Source of the DNA: Plicaturopsis crispa FD-325 SS-3
Lineage: Eukaryota > Basidiomycota > Agaricomycetes > Amylocorticiales > Amylocorticiaceae
Assembly: GCA_000827205.1 (NCBI GenBank)
Contig: KN832557.1
Span: 1,459,771-1,523,770 of the forward strand
Length of the DNA stretch: 64,000 bases
Direction: 5' to 3'
Notes under the pieces: generated by a model
What the model was told of the DNA's origin: nothing
What the model saw: only the letters and a program-made list of their open reading frames with translations
The model's database searches: none
Position numbers and translations under genes: made by a program
Shown here: piece after piece, positions 1 to 64,000 of the stretch
Numbering within the stretch: position 1 is the stretch's first letter
Layout of the letters: each line of letters opens with the position of its first letter

Positions 1-3000
1 ACGACTTTCGCAGAAACGTCCAATGGTAGCCAAGAGACAGGCTGTATAATCACCCATGAGCAAAGCTGCACAATTCAATGCGGGAAAAACATTCCTACCT
101 GCTCGCCGCCCGGGACATTGCCGAGATGTATACTTGACTTGACTAGTGAAGGGAACCACTCAGTAACCTTCCAATATCCGCTGCCTACAGCACCGCTGAT
201 TTGGCCAACGCGAATCGAGGTGGCTTTGAGGGGCGTTTGCTCCGCTGCGAGCTGAAGCACCTTCTCCGAAACCCATTTGGACTCGCTGTAGCCATTACCA
301 ATAGCGACTGCAGGTTCAACAGGAGCCTCTGGAGCTGGCCCTGTGGTGTCACGTTCTGGAAGTGGGATCTTAGTGAAGATACATCGGAGACGAAGATGTG
401 GGCGTACGACGCAGGACACCGATAGAACTGGTGAAAAGGAGACGCGCCGGGGATGGATGCGGGGAGGACAGAGCTAAGTCGATGAAATTGCGCACGCCGC
501 GGACTTGAGGCTCGAACGACTTCAGTGGTACATTGAAGTTGACGTGCCATGCTGGATGCCAAATCAACATAAGCATATGCTCGGATACCATGCGAGGCGT
601 GAGGACGCACCGTTGTGAATGATGTGTGTAACAGAGGAACGAATCTGTAACAATGCCACATACGTCACCCGTGCTACACTAGTACGACAGGACACTTACC
701 TCCTCGAACAGTTCAGCGGGAACACCCAGATTCGGCTCGCTTACATCCGTCTCGACGAGAACCACTTTCGAAGACGAGGCAATGGCGGGATCCAATCCTT
801 GCTGCTCTAAAGACGCTTCCTGTCTTTCCTTCAACGAAACGCCTGCCCGGTCTGGTCTGTTGACGGCATAGACACGCGCAATTTTGTCCGATGCCGCTAT
901 CTCGGCTAACAGAGCGGTCCCGAGACCACCTGTGGTGCCAGTCACCAATAGGACATCCTGCTCTGGTGCAGGTGCCGAGGGGGTGTGGATGAGGAAGTTG
1001 TGGCCGTATTTATCCGCGAGCGCCAACATCTCTGTTACTTTCGCGTCCACAGATACGTCCGCGGCCTGGGAAGAAGCGGTCTCCGTGGCGAACTTCGCAA
1101 GCGCTGAGATAGACGGGTACTCGTAGACGATATTACCAGGAATGACACGCGTGTTAGCCTCCGTTGTCTCTTTTAGAGCGTGGAGAAGCGAGTTCCGTAT
1201 CCACGTAGCTTGTAGACTGAGCGATAGCATCGTTAGACAGGACTGGCATTTTGGGTGAGTATCATCGACATACCTGTCGCAGCCATGCTGGAAAACATCG
1301 GCATCATCATCCAACTCTTTCTTCATCACTTTGGCGACGACAGTCCGGACGAATTTCAGGGACTCGTCGTCAGTCCAAGCTTTCGGCGGCGAGATGTCCG
1401 ATTGCGTGGTTTCATCGAACGCCTTGTAAAGTGCCTCGATTTCGTCGGCATACTCAGCCAAGACAGCGTGCCGGCGGACAGTGTTCTTGGCAGTGTATGT
1501 GAAAGGTTTCGACGGGGAGGTGACAATAATCATCTAGAATGCCATTCATGATCAGCTTAACAGTGATGAGACGAATTGCTACCTACCTCTTTGAACAACC
1601 TCGAGTGCTGAGGAGCATATTTGTTGAGACGCTCAACGGTTGGCCTAGAGAAACGGTATTAGTTGTCATGTATGTATTCGCCCAAGCGTGAACACACCAT
1701 ATCATATTGCGATACTGCTCGAGTTTTACGGTATCCGTAGGGTCAAACCTTTCTGAAGGCATTGGCTCAACGAGGACACCAGCATTGAACCTAAGGATCA
1801 TTACTGTCAGAATTTTCAAGCACGGATGCTACTCCTCAAGTGCCGACCTTCCACGACCGAACATAACGGAGTTGAACACGTATGGGTCCTGTTTCAGTAT
1901 ATTCTCTGTTGGTTCTTGGTCAATTGGCGAATATTGATCGATAAAATGGGACATACCGAGAGGTCCAGGATTTGTCTATGAACATGGTAAGCTTAGTTCC
2001 TCAGAAGGTGTTATCCGAAGAAGGGAGAGACTCACCTTCTCTCCAGTATTGTGCATGATCTGGTCATCAGACCTACCGTAGACAGCCCAGTATCCCGGTT
2101 TCTCCGGGTGCTCGATGAAGAGGTCACTCGTCGCATAAACATCGAAGTCTCCGCGTTTCGAGTTGACAACGGCAGGCGCATGAAGTTCGTGAGGCTGTTG
2201 TAGACACTAGTATGAACAATGGGGACCTATTGGCACTTGATTGACGCACATAAACGACCAGTTCCGCATGACCTTGGCCGTCAGGCTCCATCACGCATTT
2301 CATCTGGGATGACATCCTGATATACTGGAAGTCGCCAACCTCTGTACCAAGAACATGTTCAGATCCATGGACATAATACCATGAAAGCATCGCTATTGGC
2401 TTACGAGGTATGATAGGGGACGCGATGCCAACTTCGGTACTGTGTGAACGGTACATCAGTCGACGCTTCTGTAAGGCCACAGGATCCAAACAGCACACAC
2501 CATCCGTAGAGGTTGAATATAGAAATGCCTTTCGCGGTCAGTGTTTCTCCGACTTCCTTATTCAACGGGCCGCCCCCATAGAGCTTTCACACATTTCAAA
2601 ATTATACCGCAGCCTATAGGTGAGAACACTCACGACGCCTTCGATCTTTTGGAGTTTGGCCACATGCTCGGGATTTTTCGCCCATTCCTGTGCAATGAAT
2701 GAGCTTATTTCTATGCAGGGAGACAGTGTCAGTACCGCCCTCACCTCGATGAAACTTGGAACGCAGAATATGATGTCGCTTTTGGCGTCCATCGCACCCT
2801 CGAATACATGCTCGGGGGTCATGGCCTTTGCCGGAGATTGCGGCTTGAACGTAGTCACGATCAGACCACTCAGCGCCTTCCCGCGATTCTAATTAGCGCC
2901 TGCGGAGCAATGGGTACAGAACTAACATACCGTCCAGCCAATTTGGAAACAGCCCATGCCGTGGAACATAGCTAGATGCCGTCATGTCATATCAGAATCG

Positions 3001-52488: not shown

Positions 52489-52594
52489 CTGGCGTCCGGG
52501 AATGAGATTTGACTGCTGTGTCTTGGTTGTGTCGAGACCCGCTGCATAATGTATCGTATGGACGCGTAGTAGAGAACTACATAGACGTGCTGTA

Positions 52595-54351
52595 TCATGG
52601 AAAAGCTGAAAGGCGCCAATTTCCACCGCCTGATTCGAGGTATCCGATTAGGGAGACATCCATTCCCTGCCTCCTCCAATACTCTGCCTGGCCTATCAGA
52701 TCCCTAGAGCCGCTGCAAACGCATGTAAGCTGCTTTAACTGCGTGATTGCAACGCCGGGCCTGCGTCGTGATTCTACCATCTCAACGAGAGCTTCGTCTG
52801 ATACTAAAGGCAAGAGCTGGACCTCGAGCGACGAGAGATGGGGGACCAAAGATTTGGAATCGCCCGGATAGATGGAGAGGACATTGAGCATGTCTTCTGT
52901 CACCGCCGAGATACACTTCGGGGACTGCAGTCTGAGGGTCCTCAACTGGGGTACAAGATAAAGCGATTCAGCCAATGCGCCTGCGGATACTCTCGTATCA
53001 GCCAATAGACGCAAAGTCATAAGGGACGGGGTCGATCGTAGAGCGTCCGAAAGGAATTCGGCCAAGGAATTGAAGTGGAGGTATAACGAGGTGAGGGCTG
53101 ACGAGTGAGCGAGGAAAAGCTCGATGTTAGGATGCCACTCGTGATGAGGGGAATGGATTTCGAAGTGGCGCAAGGCAGGCATGCGGAGGTAGCGGAACAT
53201 ACCGCCCATCACCTCGAACGTGGACTCCGTCTCTCCTGTCCTGGTTGTGCGAAGGCCAATGGCAAGATGCTCGACGCCAGAACGTAGGCCACCCGGACGT
53301 TCCGGAAGCGCTGTGACCACTTCGACTGCCAAACGGACGTGTTTGAGTGCACGTCCCTTGGCGAGTATCTCCAAGCACTCATGCGCGGAAAAAGCATCCC
53401 CATAGTGCGTAGACTCTATTGATAAGGAAGTCAACCGGTCCCAGTCGATGTCCATGCTATGGACTTCGAATGCCAAATTCTTCATTGTTACAGTTCTTGA
53501 CACCGTGTACCATATGTCCTCTGAAGGATCTCGAGAGTCCAGGGACATCCAGTCTGGCGGACCGTTCCATGCGAATTCCCGTTTGATCTCTGGCGCCGTG
53601 GATATCTCGAGGCATTGCAGTCTAGGGAGAGGCAATGCATTCAAATCGCGAAAGATGCGGAAATAAGACGCTGGTAAAAGTGTTATCTGGAGAGTGTGTA
53701 GTCTGTCCGCGTGCGCGATGACAATGCTCCATATCCGGTTGAGTATTTCACGGCTGGAAATGTTGGGATCGTTCCACAACAAGGACGGCTTTTCCCTAGG
53801 CGGCGTCCAAGAAATAGAAAGCGGATGACGTCCAGAGCGAAAGATCCATAGAGAGACCAGAGTGTAGATGCCGAAGTCGACGCGCAAAGTCCTAGTAGTC
53901 TCGTCGTAAAAAGGGACTGCGCTCGTTTGCACTATGGACATTGATGACCACAATTTCGAAGTGGAGATGGCCAACTCTCTCCAACTTCTGCAAATCTGGG
54001 AAAGCAGCATCGGCGCACTCCTAGAGTGAACTAGTGGCTGCGATGTACGGGAAACACAAAACGAAAATATGATTGCCCAGATGTCTAGCGGGACACGACG
54101 AGCAGGAGCCATCAAAGCCGCTATGTCTGCAGCGAGACTGGCATCGGCGGGTATATGCTCCAGATAGGAAATCATATCTTGGCGCTCTTCCTGTGTAGGC
54201 ACATAGTTTGTCCCGAGATGTTTCGCGATAGCGGGGAACTGGTCCTACAGAGGATAGGCAGTGAGGTATTTTCGCAAATCGGGGAAGTTAGCTTGATAAC
54301 ATGGCGATAAAAGCTCACAGAACTTACTGAAAAGCTCCGCATTGGATCCAT
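52595..54351 (-). CDS. F-box protein with long LRR-like C-terminus
   Basis: Two exons: 54328-54351 (MDPMRSFS) and 52595-54244, joined by a 83-nt intron (GTAAGT donor, CTGTAG acceptor), giving 557 aa. After HLGTNYVPTQEERQDMISYL comes the F-box-like block ARRVPLDIWAIIFSFCVSRT (about residue 60) and ISQICRSWRELAISTSKLWS-type helices. The rest has repeating Leu-rich strands (ALTSLYLHFNSLAEFLSDAL, LMTLRLLADTRVSAGALAES), as in the large Agaricomycete F-box family. These proteins may recruit substrates to SCF ubiquitin ligases. The first ATG of the long frame is internal, so the short first exon is needed for a proper start. Family members are numerous and fast-evolving. Confidence 0.82.
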
Positions 54352-54978: not shown

Positions 54979-56436
54979 ATGTTCCGCGCGCTACCCCTCG
55001 TCCTATCGGCGTTCGTCGCGTCTACCTACGCCACGTACAACTGTACGACGATGAAAGTCCCCGTGTCCGTCTCCCTCGAGACGACCAAGCTGGATCTCTC
55101 AGCGCCCGCGAACGAGACCGAGCTCACTGCGCTAGTGACGCAGATCGTGAGCGCGACCTCGAATGTCACGTCTGCCCTTGTCAAGGGTACCGAACTCCTC
55201 AACGCGACGTACGAGATATACTCGCAGCTGTGCATTCCCGCGGGCTTCAAGCAGAACGGGACTCTCGAATTTGCCATTCATGGGTGCGTGGCCATGTTTC
55301 CCCGGGCATCTACTCGAGAAGCTGACAAAGGACCGTTGCAGGATCAACTTCGACCACTCGTACTGGACGTTCGGCGGGAAAGGCTCGCCCTACAACTACG
55401 TTGAAGCCGCTATAAATGCAGGCCACGCCATCTTCATTTATGATAGGCTCGGTACGTCTAACAACCTTCTGCACGCGCGGCAACTCGTGACCGTTGATTC
55501 GTGACCTTAGGTGTGGGCCACTCTACAAAACCAGACGGAATCAAAGAAGTGCAGTTGTCTACAGAGATTGCAGTAGCCGAGTCTCTTGTCAAACACGTGC
55601 GCAAAGGCATCGACGGCCACACCTTTGGCAAAGTCGTCGGTATTGGGCACTCTTTCGGCAGGTCCGTGAGATTTCATGTATCAAGTCGAGAAATTCCGTC
55701 TCAGATGACCTCCGCAACAGCATACAGCTAGTCGGGCTCGCCGCAAAGCATGGAAACGTCGTCGACGCAACCGTGCTGACCGGGTTCTCTACATACAGCG
55801 GAAGCACCCAGGCAACATTTGCGGGCTTCGGTGTCCGATTTGCCGCCCAGCAGAATGCAAAACGATGGGGTACGTGTGTCGTAGTATGCAGGGGGCTGAC
55901 GGAAGCTAACCACTACACTATAGGCAATCTGACGAACTCGTATCTCGCGACTCAGGGAATTTATAACGATCAGCTAACATTCTTCCATTACCCCGAGTTC
56001 GACTTTGGTACGCCATATCATTGCTACACTTACGGGCCGTTATGAATACTCTCTTTACAGCCAACCTCGAACTTGCCGAGACGACGAAAGCGACGCTAAC
56101 AATCGGCGAGCTGCTTACGCAGGGCGAAGCTCTCGCGTCCCCTGCCACCTCATACACCGGCCCCGTCTTCGTCGTCACTGGCGACAAAGATTTGTGCGTC
56201 CCTCCATCCTTCTCGCGATGCGGGATAGATTCTAACGATGATATAGCATATTCTGCGGTGCCAACTGCTACCAGTCCATGAACGGCTCGGCTAATCTCCT
56301 CGAGCCGAGCAAAGCTCTGTTCCCCGCCGCATCCAGCTTCTCGACGTACATTCCTGTTGGCACTGGGCATGCTGTTAACCAGCACTTCAGCGCCCCCGAG
56401 ACGTACAGAGTCATTGAAAAGTGGATTGGGGCTTAA
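54979..56436 (+). CDS. Secreted alpha/beta hydrolase
   Basis: ATG at 54979 opens a signal peptide (MFRALPLVLSAFVASTYA), and mature sequence begins near TYNCTTMKVPVSV. About seven exons continue: FEFAIHG-type end of the first exon, INFDHSYWTFGGKGSPYNYV, then AIFIYDRLGVGHST. The nucleophile elbow is VVGIGHSFGS (about 55640), with IQLVGLAAKHGN after the intron. AAQQNAKRWG-NLTNSYLATQG, VFVVTGDKDL (acid-residue region, about 56170) and a late VGTGHAVNQHF supply the catalytic His. It is probably an extracellular esterase or lipase-like enzyme of about 390 aa; substrate unknown. Several N-glycosylation sites (NCT, NET, NVT, NAT) support secretion. The first ATG in frame upstream of the signal is at 54928 but lies after an apparent TATA box. 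Confidence 0.85.
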
Positions 56437-59380: not shown

Positions 59381-62300
59381 ATGGACATAATCCAGAACAT
59401 AAGGCGCCAAAATGGCGTCGACGAGGACATGCTCGCGCGTGTCGCCAAAGATCCTCAAGTCGCGCAGTCGATAGCGGCGATGCGAGCCAATCTTGAGAGA
59501 GCTCTGGAAAGGTGAGTTTCTAGTAGTTGTCGTCGTCGGTAGTCGAGCGCTGACCGATGCTGTCTATATCGCTCAGCCTCTCCGAGGAGTTGTACTCGAA
59601 GTCGACTCATTTCCTGTATGAGTTTATACAGAATGCGGACGATAATACATACGCCGACGGCGTGGAACCGGCCCTCCACTTGGAGCTCGGGCTGTGTACC
59701 CTGGTTATTCGTTGCAACGAAGTTGGGTTCAACAAGGAGAATGTTGAAGCAATCTGCAAAATTGGCGCTAGCACGAAGAAGAATATGAGTGGATACATCG
59801 GTGAGTATAGTAAGCGGTTTTCCAAATTCGACTTTAAGTTAACGTATACGGAAACATCGCAGGAGAGAAGGGAATCGGTAATTTGTTCCTGTATACGCCA
59901 TCCGACGGTGTGTAAGTTAATGCGTGGACTGCAGGTTTCAAATCTGTTTTCAAGGTCGCCGACGTGGTGCACATCTCGTCTGGACCGTTCACATTCAAGC
60001 TCGACAAACGCGAGGCCCTGGGGATCATCACACCTATCTGGTCTGATCTACTTCCCGTTGAACAAGGCTGGACCACATTTCGGCTACAGCTCTCTAATTC
60101 CGAGAACGTTGCCAACTTGGCGACCCACCTAAAGTCTCTCAAGCCTTCCATACTCCTTTTTCTCCGGAGACTGCGCTCATTAAACATCGACATTGCTTTC
60201 GAGGGCACTCGGCGCAACGTCAAGATAGCCCGTCGCGATAAAGGCGAACATATAACCAATCTCGAACGTGTTGTAGATGGAGCCCTCGACCTATCTCAAG
60301 ATTACCACGCCGTGACGCACACGGCAAGTACATATATTGGCGAGGCGAAACGGGACGGGATAACTCAGAGTGATATTGTGCTGGCATTTCCTGTCGGCAG
60401 GGATGGCCGTCCAGACATCAGAACCGAAGAGGTCCATGCGTTTCTACCTCTCAAAAATTTCGGATTCCACGTGAGTCTCACGACGAGTATCAAATCTTTG
60501 TCGCTAACACTCGCTGTAGTTCATGATTCAAGCCGACTTCTTGACGTCCTCCAGTAGGGAAGACATCCTGACAGACTCGCAGTGGAACATCAAGCTCCGC
60601 GAAGGGGTCGTGGATGCTTTTGTGCGGGCGGTTATTGAACACTTCCGGAGTTCTACAACCTTGGAGTATGTCTGGATACAATACCTTCCTTCCAACATCG
60701 TTGATCCGTTCTTTGTGCGCCTCCAAGACGATATAGTCTCATCGCTCAAAAAGATCCCCATTATTCGCTCCGCCACCCACAATTACCAACATCCTGGGAA
60801 GGTCTTGACTGTCCCGTCGTGTTTCTGCGACGACAAAGGCTCGCCGCTCATTCCGGAGATTTCTCTTCCTAGAGACACATTTTATCTACACAAAGGTTAC
60901 AATACCGTTGGGGATGCTACTCATCTGCATTCATTGGGTGTCAAGAGTATGGATATGAGGCTATTCGTCGACGGTCTTGAACGGATGAACTTGGCGGCAT
61001 CTCGTGGCGACCTCTGGACAAATCGCAATTCTGGCTCATGGCTTGAAGCCGTGTGTCGCCAACTTCTCTCAGCATTCACCTCGAGCTCGTACGAGTTGAG
61101 GTTGTTGAGGCCTAGAATCGTCGCCCTTCGCATTCTGCCCCTCAATGATGGCTCCTGGGCTGCTGCATCTGGGGCATCGACTGTCGTATTCGCCTCGGCT
61201 CTGGATGGTATTCCCGACGACATCGCTCTACCTACGATCAAGCCGAACATTCCACCGTCGTCGGATAGATACAGGCTTTTCAAAGCACTTGGTGCGAAAC
61301 CAGCAGACGCGAAAGCCGTTGCGAATGAAATTCTGGCTTTACATCGAGGTCGTTCGGCTTCCCTCCGGCGCTCGTCCCTGATTCAGCATGCCAAATTTAT
61401 GTTCACCCATCGTGACAAGTCCATATCGACGCATGAGCTTCTCGTTATGGATGACCAGGACCAGATAGTCAGGGGAAATCAGGTCTACATGGACTCACCT
61501 GGGTCCACAACCTTCGCGATGCGCAATGTCCTGGCTGGCACTTCGGCACGGTTTATCCATCCCGACTACCTCAAGGAATACCATGGACACCCCAAGCATG
61601 CCTCGTGGGTGCAGTGGATCAAGGACTCGCTGGGTGTCAATGTTATCCCTCGTGTCATCGATTCGGATGGTCACTTATCCCCGGAATTTCAGTCAATGAC
61701 CAAGAGACTCAACTCGCAGATTTTGCTCAAAGTTCTCAGAGTATTTTGGTCTCAATGGGAATTATCAGAGCCAACTCTATCCCAGCTCTCTAAAGTCATT
61801 GTATCATGTGAAGATGACACCTTCCAGCCTCTCAACAACACTTCGCTCAGGCGCGGAGCCTTAAAAAACCACCGGCGCCTACACTTCCTCCCGATCAGCC
61901 ACCCGGAAGATAAAGGATGGACATTTCTGCGCGAGGTCGGGGTTACTACGGAGGCTGATGCATCCTTGTTTCTTAAGCTTCTTTTTCGACTTCAAAGCGA
62001 TGATTGTAGAGATGCTTCCAGCGTAACCGCAATCTACATTCAGCTTGGTGCGAGATTCGATGACGACGCGGATAGCATACGGTGCGCACGATATTCTCCC
62101 TATTGTTATCATCGTCATGTTCTAACACTAGTCTAGCAAAGCTTTTGAACAGAAACCGTTGGTGTTTTTGCGACGTGCAGATGGCACAGACCCGGGGAGA
62201 TGGATGCCCTTGTCTAAGTGTTTTTGGGACGGTCCGCTGTCAATACTCTCCAAAGCCCGGCTCAAGGCATTCTTCTCGGATTCTTCACTCCGAGAATTTT

Positions 62301-64000
62301 TCGCAGACAAGTTAGGGGTCCAAAACGCGCCCCGAGCTTTGATTGTAGACGATCTGAAGGATGTTGCGGGCCTTTGGCGAGATAAAGTCCTTCCACGGGA
62401 AGTCGTTTCTCAAGTCAAGGGCTTACTCTGCGACATCAGTAACGAAATTGGCGATTCGCCACAAACGGCTTCGCGAGATTTTGGCGCCCTTCGCGATCTG
62501 GCCATCTTTCCAGCCCACACAAAGCTGGGAACCGTGCTGTTACCTTTGAATCAGCTCTACGTGCCAACATTTCCCTCCAATCACAAACTCAACGAAGTGT
62601 TCACGCCACTAGTGCCTTTGTTGGAGGCATCATCGACAGATATTAATCGTCTTGACGCGTTGTTGCGTTCCGAGGTATTCCGGGAGTGCGTACGCTTCCT
62701 TGCATTCGCTGCTACCAGCGACACAGTGCCGTCTGGACCGCCCATATTTGACACTGCGTTGACACAACAATTTGCAAGAAGGGTCGAATTCTTCGAGAGG
62801 TGCGTTCTTATCTCCGTTCCCAATCCAGTTTGTTGATGCTGAACAATACACAGAATAATACACCACGACATTTTGAAGAGGACGCGCAACAAGTCGGGCT
62901 GTGAGCAGCTCTTCACGCAACTACACAACCTCAAAATCTCGCGGGTAGAGTCTCTGGAACAGAAACTCTGTCTTGAGAGTCATATCGTACCATTCAAGGT
63001 ACCCTCCCACACGGAATGCGATGAGCACCAACTTTCGATATTGCTCAGTAACAGCGACCCGAAAGGCGATGATTTCTCAGTCATCGCGGAGCTAAGCACA
63101 TTGCTGGGAATCAGTAAAGATAAGCTTAACAGTGTCGTGTATATGCCACCTGACAATGTGAGGCGATACCTGGATGACGCAGGGATCGCTGAGCTCGGAA
63201 CCTCGGGTGCTTCTGGGCTTTCTTCCATGGAAAGTACACTCTCCGACGCGTATACACGCCCAGCCTCTGGCCCTAGTATGGGAACATCGAGTGCTGCGAA
63301 CGAGGAAGTACTGCCTCCGATTTTAGCGCCCATAAAACGGGCTCACCAGATCGAAATTGGCACTTTCGACGAACTTGCTCAGGCTGCATCGCAATCTGGC
63401 CCGGGCATGATACACAAGGGGGCTTCAGCGTCCTTCGCACGACAAGACATCGGGGACCTTCTCCGTTATGCACCAACATCTGCCGCGGTCACTATTACTC
63501 CCACTACGCGCAAGTCCACGCCCTTGTCCGACAGTGGGCAAGAGTCAACACGTGCTTCATTGACTACTAGTACTAGTAGTTCGATGCTGGCGCAGTCCCG
63601 AAATGAAGATGTCACGGAATTCGACCGCGAGAATGGTATCCGTGGAGAATGTTTCGTGAGTGCCCCTCTTCGCATCAAATTATCTATATTGCTCAACACC
63701 ATTGCGCTTCAGATTTACGCCATGTTACGGGACGTGTACAAGTTGCCCAACTTCGACGAGAACAACTGGACAAGTGAGCTTCGCGGTTGTGTCCCAGAAT
63801 TCAGACCGCAGGAACCAAATTTCAAAGCGCTCGCCGACTTTGAGTACGCCGACACCCGAGGCATTTTAACCGGTATTCTTTATGGGCCAGACAGACGAGT
63901 AGCATGGAAAGATTGTTGGCCAGTATATCACCTGGAGGTGAAATCTACTTCAGGTGCAGCGCGACTTCCATTCCACATGAGTGCGCATCAAATGGATATC
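59381..64000 (+). CDS. GHKL/Hsp90-like ATPase with C-terminal DUF3883, 3' end beyond the window
   Basis: ATG at 59381 (MDIIQNIRRQNGVDED). After the first intron the frame reads LYSKSTHFLYEFIQNADDNT, the N-box of GHKL ATPases. KIGASTKKNMSGYIG and, across two introns, GEKGIGFKSVFKVADVVHIS supply the G1/G2-like loops. TFRLQLS is a further conserved segment. A long middle part without a recognised domain follows (FMIQADFLTSSSREDILTDS, then about 800 residues with repeated helices). A Ser/Thr-rich disordered linker then leads to a DUF3883 domain beginning IYAMLRDVYKLPNF (63715) and holding FEYADTRGI and YHLEVKSTSG. The E-x-K is where DUF3883 nuclease-like domains carry catalytic-type residues. The frame continues off the right edge. 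The combination resembles Sacsin/NOV-type proteins; the role is unknown. Confidence 0.85.

What the first reader, a model, noticed from the sequence alone, without database searches (positions are those of the whole stretch)
59381..64000. GHKL (Hsp90/Sacsin-like) ATPase fused to a DUF3883 nuclease-like domain
Seen: an N-terminal GHKL ATPase with FIQNADDN and GEKGIGFKSVF, a roughly 1000-residue middle without named domain, a disordered linker, and a DUF3883 ending with LEVKST. Known: DUF3883 occurs in bacterial defence-related and restriction-like proteins, and its E-x-K resembles PD-(D/E)xK nuclease sites; Sacsin-type GHKL modules pair with it. Inference: this may be a stress, nucleic-acid-sensing or genome-defence ATPase in fungi. 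Its job is undescribed as far as I know, and it is the best candidate here for a new system.
Basis: partly seen in the sequence, partly recalled or inferred. Interest (0 to 1): 0.7.

Follow-up and report, generated by a model that had tools for sequence, protein, structure and literature searches.

The report
Fungal relative of Tiamat anti-phage protein
A fungal gene encodes a large ATP-binding protein with a nuclease-like tail that is a full-length relative of Tiamat, a bacterial anti-phage protein of unknown mechanism, which makes it a testable candidate for genome defence in fungi.

Summary
The gene has nine exons (59381-64286, 286 bases past the window) and encodes 1482 aa, one copy by tblastn: GHKL ATPase, long middle, S/T/G/P-rich linker, C-terminal DUF3883/NOV_C. 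Pfam sees only the sacsin-type ATPase. NOV_C is too diverged for the Pfam model but matches prokaryotic NOV_C ends profile-to-profile above 60 shuffles, with D1353 and E1386-x-K1388 in register. Prokaryotic relatives of about 1,350-1,690 aa share body and order of parts (ATPase part up to 44% identical). In trees of the ATPase part and of the body it sits beside proteobacterial TmtA; no other eukaryote could be included. Among 83 relatives the C-end varies: NOV_C in 40 (Pfam), CxxC...C..[HC] in 26 (motif), others. Some close relatives lie beside BREX, HerA and restriction-modification genes. The homologous NOV_C models like PD-(D/E)xK nucleases. Best reading: an ATP-gated nuclease-type effector of prokaryotic defence descent. 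Defence in the fungus is plausible but untested; a NO VEIN-like developmental role is the main rival. New member of a known kind.

The parts
59381..64000 (+). whole gene inside the window: exons 59381-59511, 59577-59800, 59863-59877, 59935-60470, 60520-62081, 62137-62799, 62854-63655, 63713-64000; last exon outside the window at positions 64059-64286 (L001)
   Evidence: one open frame of 1482 aa, eight GT-AG introns
59611..59643 (+). GHKL N-box FLYEFIQNADD (aa 56-66; E59, N63, D66)
   Evidence: E59, Q62, N63, A64, D66 invariant in Q and four plasmid homologues; the same positions at least 90% conserved in A2, whose 26 prokaryotic rows cover this part
59800..59951 (+). glycine-rich ATP-lid motif GEKGIGFKSVF (aa 119-129), split over three exons including a 15-nt microexon 59863-59877
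   Evidence: splicing; G119, G122, G124, F125, K126, S127, V128 invariant in five sequences
59935..60651 (+). rest of the ATPase plus transducer-like part ending in IQADFLTSSSREDI..DSQWN (aa 124-346)
   Evidence: Pfam SACS, PADLOC TmtA, NF047352; homologue model like Hsp90/GyrB N+middle
60652..63112 (+). TmtA body (about aa 347-1130), no Pfam name
   Evidence: blastp: L019 ORF covers Q 2-1084, 27% identity, E 6e-77; L020 Q 771-1129, E 5e-11; L036 Q 767-1176, E 2e-7
63200..63622 (+). S/T/G/P-rich linker (about aa 1160-1300), probably disordered
   Evidence: composition only
63632..64000 (+). diverged NOV_C/DUF3883 PD-(D/E)xK-type domain (about aa 1304-1482; runs on to 64286): D1353 at 63836-63838, E1386 at 63935-63937, K1388 at 63941-63943
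   Evidence: profile-profile match; residue numbers; fold of an archaeal homologue

Best explanation
The gene encodes a eukaryotic member of the TmtA (Tiamat) family: a GHKL ATPase that binds ATP and closes, probably as a dimer, whose motion is passed through a transducer-like part and a long body to a PD-(D/E)xK nuclease-type NOV_C domain hung on a flexible linker. By descent and anatomy it most likely acts as an ATP-gated effector against foreign or aberrant nucleic acid (mycovirus, transposon or other invading DNA or RNA). Shown here: gene structure, homology along most of the length, kept ATPase and nuclease-site residues, place in the tree of sampled relatives, variation of the C-terminal effector among relatives, nuclease-type fold of the homologous archaeal domain. 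Inferred: dimer closure, ATP gating, nucleic acid as substrate. Not shown: any activity or role in the fungus.
Against: No functional datum for any fungal member. Q's NOV_C fails the Pfam model. Its C-end matches archaeal/cyanobacterial-type NOV_C ends (score 40.1) but not those of its proteobacterial sister clade (14.8) nor the rest (19.9), both inside the shuffle range; a window 1201-1400, which holds D, E and K but lacks the last 82 residues, also scores only 20.3. The 19 ends in the profile were picked by an E-x-K motif, so their full keeping of E and K is partly by choice. MAFFT on exon 8 alone puts another Asp in the D column. Foldseek's best E is only 0.016, and its list also holds non-nucleases (Rep15:Rab3B, frataxin). 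The helicase next to TmtA in the five sister loci was not found in the fungal genome (no positive control). Long branch (2.7) on the body tree. No other eukaryotic sequence could be compared. Control neighbourhoods also gave 53 PADLOC families, among them DpdE, ZorD and MkoA.
Confidence: 0.45

Rival explanations
1. A NO VEIN-like regulatory factor: the same architecture taken over for nuclear or developmental control, with the NOV_C domain binding rather than cutting nucleic acid.
For: Plant NO VEIN gives PF13020 its name; [quoted passage not shown] PMC12690905 (passages) reports a NO VEIN / wu:fj29h11 homologue in a worm and says none has been characterised in metazoans.
Against: The putative cut-site residues D1353, E1386, K1388 are in register in the fungal protein, which binding alone would not need; nearest sampled relatives are TmtA-type proteins, though no plant sequence was in the comparison.
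Confidence: 0.25
2. A housekeeping DNA transaction enzyme of GHKL type (as MutL, Topo VI-B, GyrB) that cuts or clamps DNA in repair, recombination or silencing.
For: Fold likeness of the homologue's N+body to GyrB and Topo VI-B as well as Hsp90, and of the homologous NOV_C to Holliday junction resolvases Hjc and RecU and to FAN1; one copy.
Against: Prokaryotic relatives carry varying C-ends and some sit in defence neighbourhoods, unlike repair enzymes as I know them.
Confidence: 0.15
3. A sacsin/Hsp90-like chaperone.
Against: No DnaJ, HEPN, ubiquitin-like or repeated SACS domain reported by Pfam; a nuclease-type C-end in their place; HSP90-family NCBIfam models far below cut-off (31.8 against 455 bits on aa 1-346).
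Confidence: 0.1

Closest known systems
Tiamat (TmtA), anti-phage defence system, PADLOC PDLC03966/PDLC03972
   Same: GHKL ATPase, long body and, in NOV_C-bearing members, C-terminal NOV_C; HMM match E 5e-92; co-linear over most of the length; ATPase part up to 44% identical
   Different: gene with eight introns; diverged NOV_C; no helicase partner found; antiviral activity unknown
Plant NO VEIN and its NOV_C domain (PF13020, DUF3883)
   Same: GHKL + C-terminal NOV_C architecture (plant side recalled)
   Different: no plant sequence could be compared here; the PF13020 model itself does not hit the fungal protein
Sacsin (PF25794 SACS domain)
   Same: same type of ATPase domain
   Different: no UBL, DnaJ, HEPN or repeats found; ends in a nuclease-type domain
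PD-(D/E)xK nucleases (Hjc, RecU, SPARDA nuclease)
   Same: D...ExK residues, and fold of the homologous archaeal domain
   Different: larger spacing between D and ExK in the fungal sequence; activity untested
BbrUII/HgiDII-type GHKL restriction enzymes (NF050001)
   Same: GHKL ATPase in a restriction enzyme; weak match E 0.0025 over aa 41-139
   Different: far below cut-off (16.4 against 550 bits)

Membership tests
Tiamat (TmtA) | match to TmtA profiles | tested here: met
   E 5.1e-92 and 5.9e-85, eight TmtA models hit; PADLOC's own coverage threshold was not tested
Tiamat (TmtA) | co-linear architecture ATPase - body - effector | tested here: met
   blastp and full alignment
Tiamat (TmtA) | place inside the prokaryotic family tree | tested here: met
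   7-row clade 99/83 on the ATPase part; sister to five of the same proteobacteria at 91/95 on the body, not starred and on a long branch; rows chosen by likeness to Q, no other eukaryote
Tiamat (TmtA) | anti-phage (antiviral) activity | not testable with these tools
   none
Tiamat (TmtA) | prokaryotic defence-island context | not tested
   the gene is a spliced eukaryotic gene; defence context was examined only for prokaryotic relatives
NOV_C / DUF3883 (PF13020) | Pfam gathering score 22.1 bits | tested here: not met
   no hit at E<=10 on the whole protein or on the last 201 residues
NOV_C / DUF3883 (PF13020) | homology by profile-profile comparison with NOV_C-type ends | tested here: met
   score 37.6 against shuffle maximum 20.3 in 60; HNH ends 11.1, body 12.4; subsets 40.1, 14.8, 19.9
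NOV_C / DUF3883 (PF13020) | D and E-x-K residues | tested here: met
   Q D1353 (hhalign register; MAFFT on exon 8 alone differs), E1386, K1388; 19 of 19 ends, which were picked by E-x-K
Plant NO VEIN orthology | reciprocal closest relative of plant NO VEIN | not testable with these tools
   no plant or other eukaryotic genome collection at hand
Sacsin | SACS-type ATPase domain | tested here: met
   PF25794 47.7 bits against cut-off 32.8
Sacsin | UBL, three repeats, DnaJ, HEPN | tested here: not met
   no such Pfam hit at E<=10, 1482 aa
Hsp90 chaperone | HSP90-family model above cut-off | tested here: not met
   31.8 of 455 bits on aa 1-346
PD-(D/E)xK nuclease | fold | tested here: inconclusive
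PD-(D/E)xK nuclease | cleavage activity | not testable with these tools
   none

The most novel reading that the evidence does not exclude
Fungi keep a working copy of a bacterial anti-phage machine: a Tiamat-type ATP-gated nuclease, acquired from prokaryotes, that senses and destroys invading or aberrant nucleic acid (mycovirus, transposon or foreign DNA), so that the NO VEIN-like proteins of eukaryotes as a whole descend from prokaryotic immunity.
Probability: 0.3. Interest if true: 0.8.

Novelty: new member of a known kind. Interest (0 to 1): 0.55.

Why it matters
Tiamat is listed as a defence system of unknown mechanism (PMC10482375 and PMC12926258, passages), and the eukaryotic NO VEIN-like proteins have no known biochemistry as far as I recall. 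Joining the two gives each a testable mechanism: ATP-gated cutting by an exchangeable C-terminal effector. It would add a fungal case to the immune proteins shared by bacteria and eukaryotes. The searches made here (0 papers; 7 papers with DUF3883; 3 papers; 890 papers hold 4 of 5 terms, none of the 20 listed holds 'Tiamat') turned up no paper that links Tiamat with NO VEIN or with a fungal protein; the library lacks most subscription journals.

Tried and rejected
Pfam and NCBIfam on the C-end gave nothing, so DUF3883 was tested by profile-profile comparison. tblastn of the C-end against plasmids gave one chance-level hit (E 0.5). Viral contigs with the single protein gave 3 pattern hits and no relative; with alignment A1 64 pattern hits and 14 loci. 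The phage collection gave one weak hit in an unannotated record. No helicase partner in the fungal genome (no positive control). Further sacsin-type genes: three sub-cut-off exon-size hits that could not be read; that search did not list the gene studied either, so it is insensitive to spliced genes. Paper searches: and, where I looked, one search are mostly unrelated uses of 'no vein'; mostly found papers on Vibrio labelled NOVC. PMC10197012, searched for six terms, has no sacsin, GHKL, HATPase, Hsp90 or NO VEIN. A recent transfer from proteobacteria is not accepted: the body is nearest to them, but the C-end is nearer to archaeal/cyanobacterial NOV_C, and no other eukaryote could be placed. 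Of the two fold predictions, the 1190-aa model has pTM 0.48, so its domain arrangement is not used; parts beyond residue 453 are barely tested by the fold searches.

Full report
Check of the observation. The raw sequence and its continuation beyond the window give a nine-exon gene with eight GT-AG introns and one frame of 1482 residues ending at position 64286. FIQNADDN lies in exon 2; GEKGIGFKSVF is assembled from exons 2, 3 and 4, exon 3 being only 15 nt. There is one copy in the 33.2 Mb assembly at tblastn sensitivity.

What databases say. Pfam reports only the sacsin-type ATPase (PF25794, E 2.3e-12); NCBIfam agrees (NF047352, E 3e-18). PF13020 (NOV_C, formerly DUF3883) is not detected in the protein. 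The defence library changes the picture: the whole protein matches TmtA, the protein of the Tiamat anti-phage system, with E 5.1e-92 and 5.9e-85 and eight TmtA models in all. The C-terminal 201 residues alone reach the C-end of the same model weakly (E 0.017, positions 1573-1630 of 1655).

Prokaryotic relatives. tblastn of residues 1-346 found 16 plasmid records, nine annotated as DUF3883 proteins, one beside QatABCD. The closest are 40-44% identical over the ATPase part. Relatives of about 1,350-1,690 aa align along the length: L019 over Q 2-1084 (27%, E 6e-77), L020 over Q 771-1129 and L036 over Q 767-1176. Six relatives scanned are TmtA in PADLOC (L020, L053, L036, L032, L024, L012). Of six scanned with Pfam, L020, L053 and L036 carry NOV_C at the end, L032 an HNH_2 below its cut-off, L028 a helicase, L024 nothing named there.

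ATPase and body. E59, N63, D66 and G119, G122, G124 are invariant among Q and four plasmid homologues, and the same positions are at least 90% conserved in A2, where 26 prokaryotic rows cover them. A model of residues 1-1190 of L053 (pLDDT 85.4, pTM 0.48) resembles Hsp90 N+middle, GyrB and Topo VI-B within residues 27-457, and sacsin SR1 within 38-229. The rest of the body is barely tested.

Tree and variation of effectors. On the ATPase part of 97 rows (Q and 96 of 98 loci; two too short) Q falls with six proteobacterial rows at 99/83, and within 20 rows at 100/98. On the body alone (27 rows, ATPase part left out) it is again sister to five of those proteobacteria, 91/95, not starred, on a branch of 2.7. 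The rows were chosen by likeness to Q and hold no other eukaryote, so this shows that Q lies within the prokaryotic family as sampled, not when or how it came. Of 98 loci, 8 ORFs run off the contig and 7 of the rest are under 700 aa; among the remaining 83, Pfam at E<=0.01 finds NOV_C in 40, HNH_2 in 4, AAA_12 helicase in 3, NucS_C in 1 and a caspase domain in 1. By a rough motif they are 41 NOV, 26 CxxC...C..[HC], 16 other; a few motif calls look doubtful (for example L086, L090, L107), and Pfam names only 4 HNH_2. The motif labels need 22 changes on the tree (shuffled mean 35.8, as low in 0 of 200). An ATPase body that keeps exchanging its end is the pattern expected of a defence sensor with an effector.

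Neighbourhoods. Of the 19 loci in the 20-row clade, 14 had a usable control region from the same genome. Around these, 99 neighbouring ORFs within 5 kb hit 145 PADLOC families at E<=1e-15, among them BrxL, PglZ, HerA, type I and III R-M, GajB-type helicase and JetC-type, with DrmMI and type IIG models on the first member; 108 ORFs around alanyl-tRNA synthetase in the same 14 genomes hit 53, among them DpdE, ZorD, MkoA and mad3 models. Models overlap and only the first 25 are listed, so proteins could not be counted and no test was made. In the five proteobacterial sister loci with a complete gene the next gene is an SF1/UvrD-type helicase of about 570 aa, with a Pfam NERD domain in four of the five (not in L016).

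Function. The mechanism offered (ATP-gated PD-(D/E)xK effector against foreign nucleic acid) follows from anatomy and descent; nothing here measures it. NO VEIN in plants is reported as a nuclear factor for cell fate (PMC12289216 passage), which keeps a developmental role open. Tiamat's own mechanism is given as unknown (PMC10482375, PMC12926258 passages). The original Tiamat and NO VEIN papers are not held; what I say of them beyond those passages is recalled.

Verdict. It is a new member of a known kind, with a bold and testable reading.

Noticed in passing
window 59863-59877: a 15-nt microexon that supplies the middle of the ATP-lid motif GEKGIG
   Followed up: yes
L016 14650-16365, L019 14734-16464, L026 14602-16317, L027 14593-16299, L053 14668-16383: in these five proteobacterial sister loci the TmtA gene is followed at once by an SF1 helicase of about 570 aa, four of five with a NERD domain by Pfam: possibly a two-gene form of Tiamat
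   Followed up: partly
A5 members (83 prokaryotic C-ends): one relative each ends in a caspase (Peptidase_C14) or NucS_C domain: further exchangeable effectors on the same ATPase body
   Followed up: no
   Followed up: no
window about 51-52.5 kb and 57.1-59.0 kb, + strand: two similar genes near each other (shared SDE.D..WWAEV.ALGW and C-terminal VKWGW.GADDH, read by eye); looks like a duplication beside the gene studied
   Followed up: no
window 54980-56436 +, 52500-54350 -: a secreted alpha/beta-hydrolase-like gene and an F-box/LRR-like gene on the other strand, by eye only
   Followed up: no
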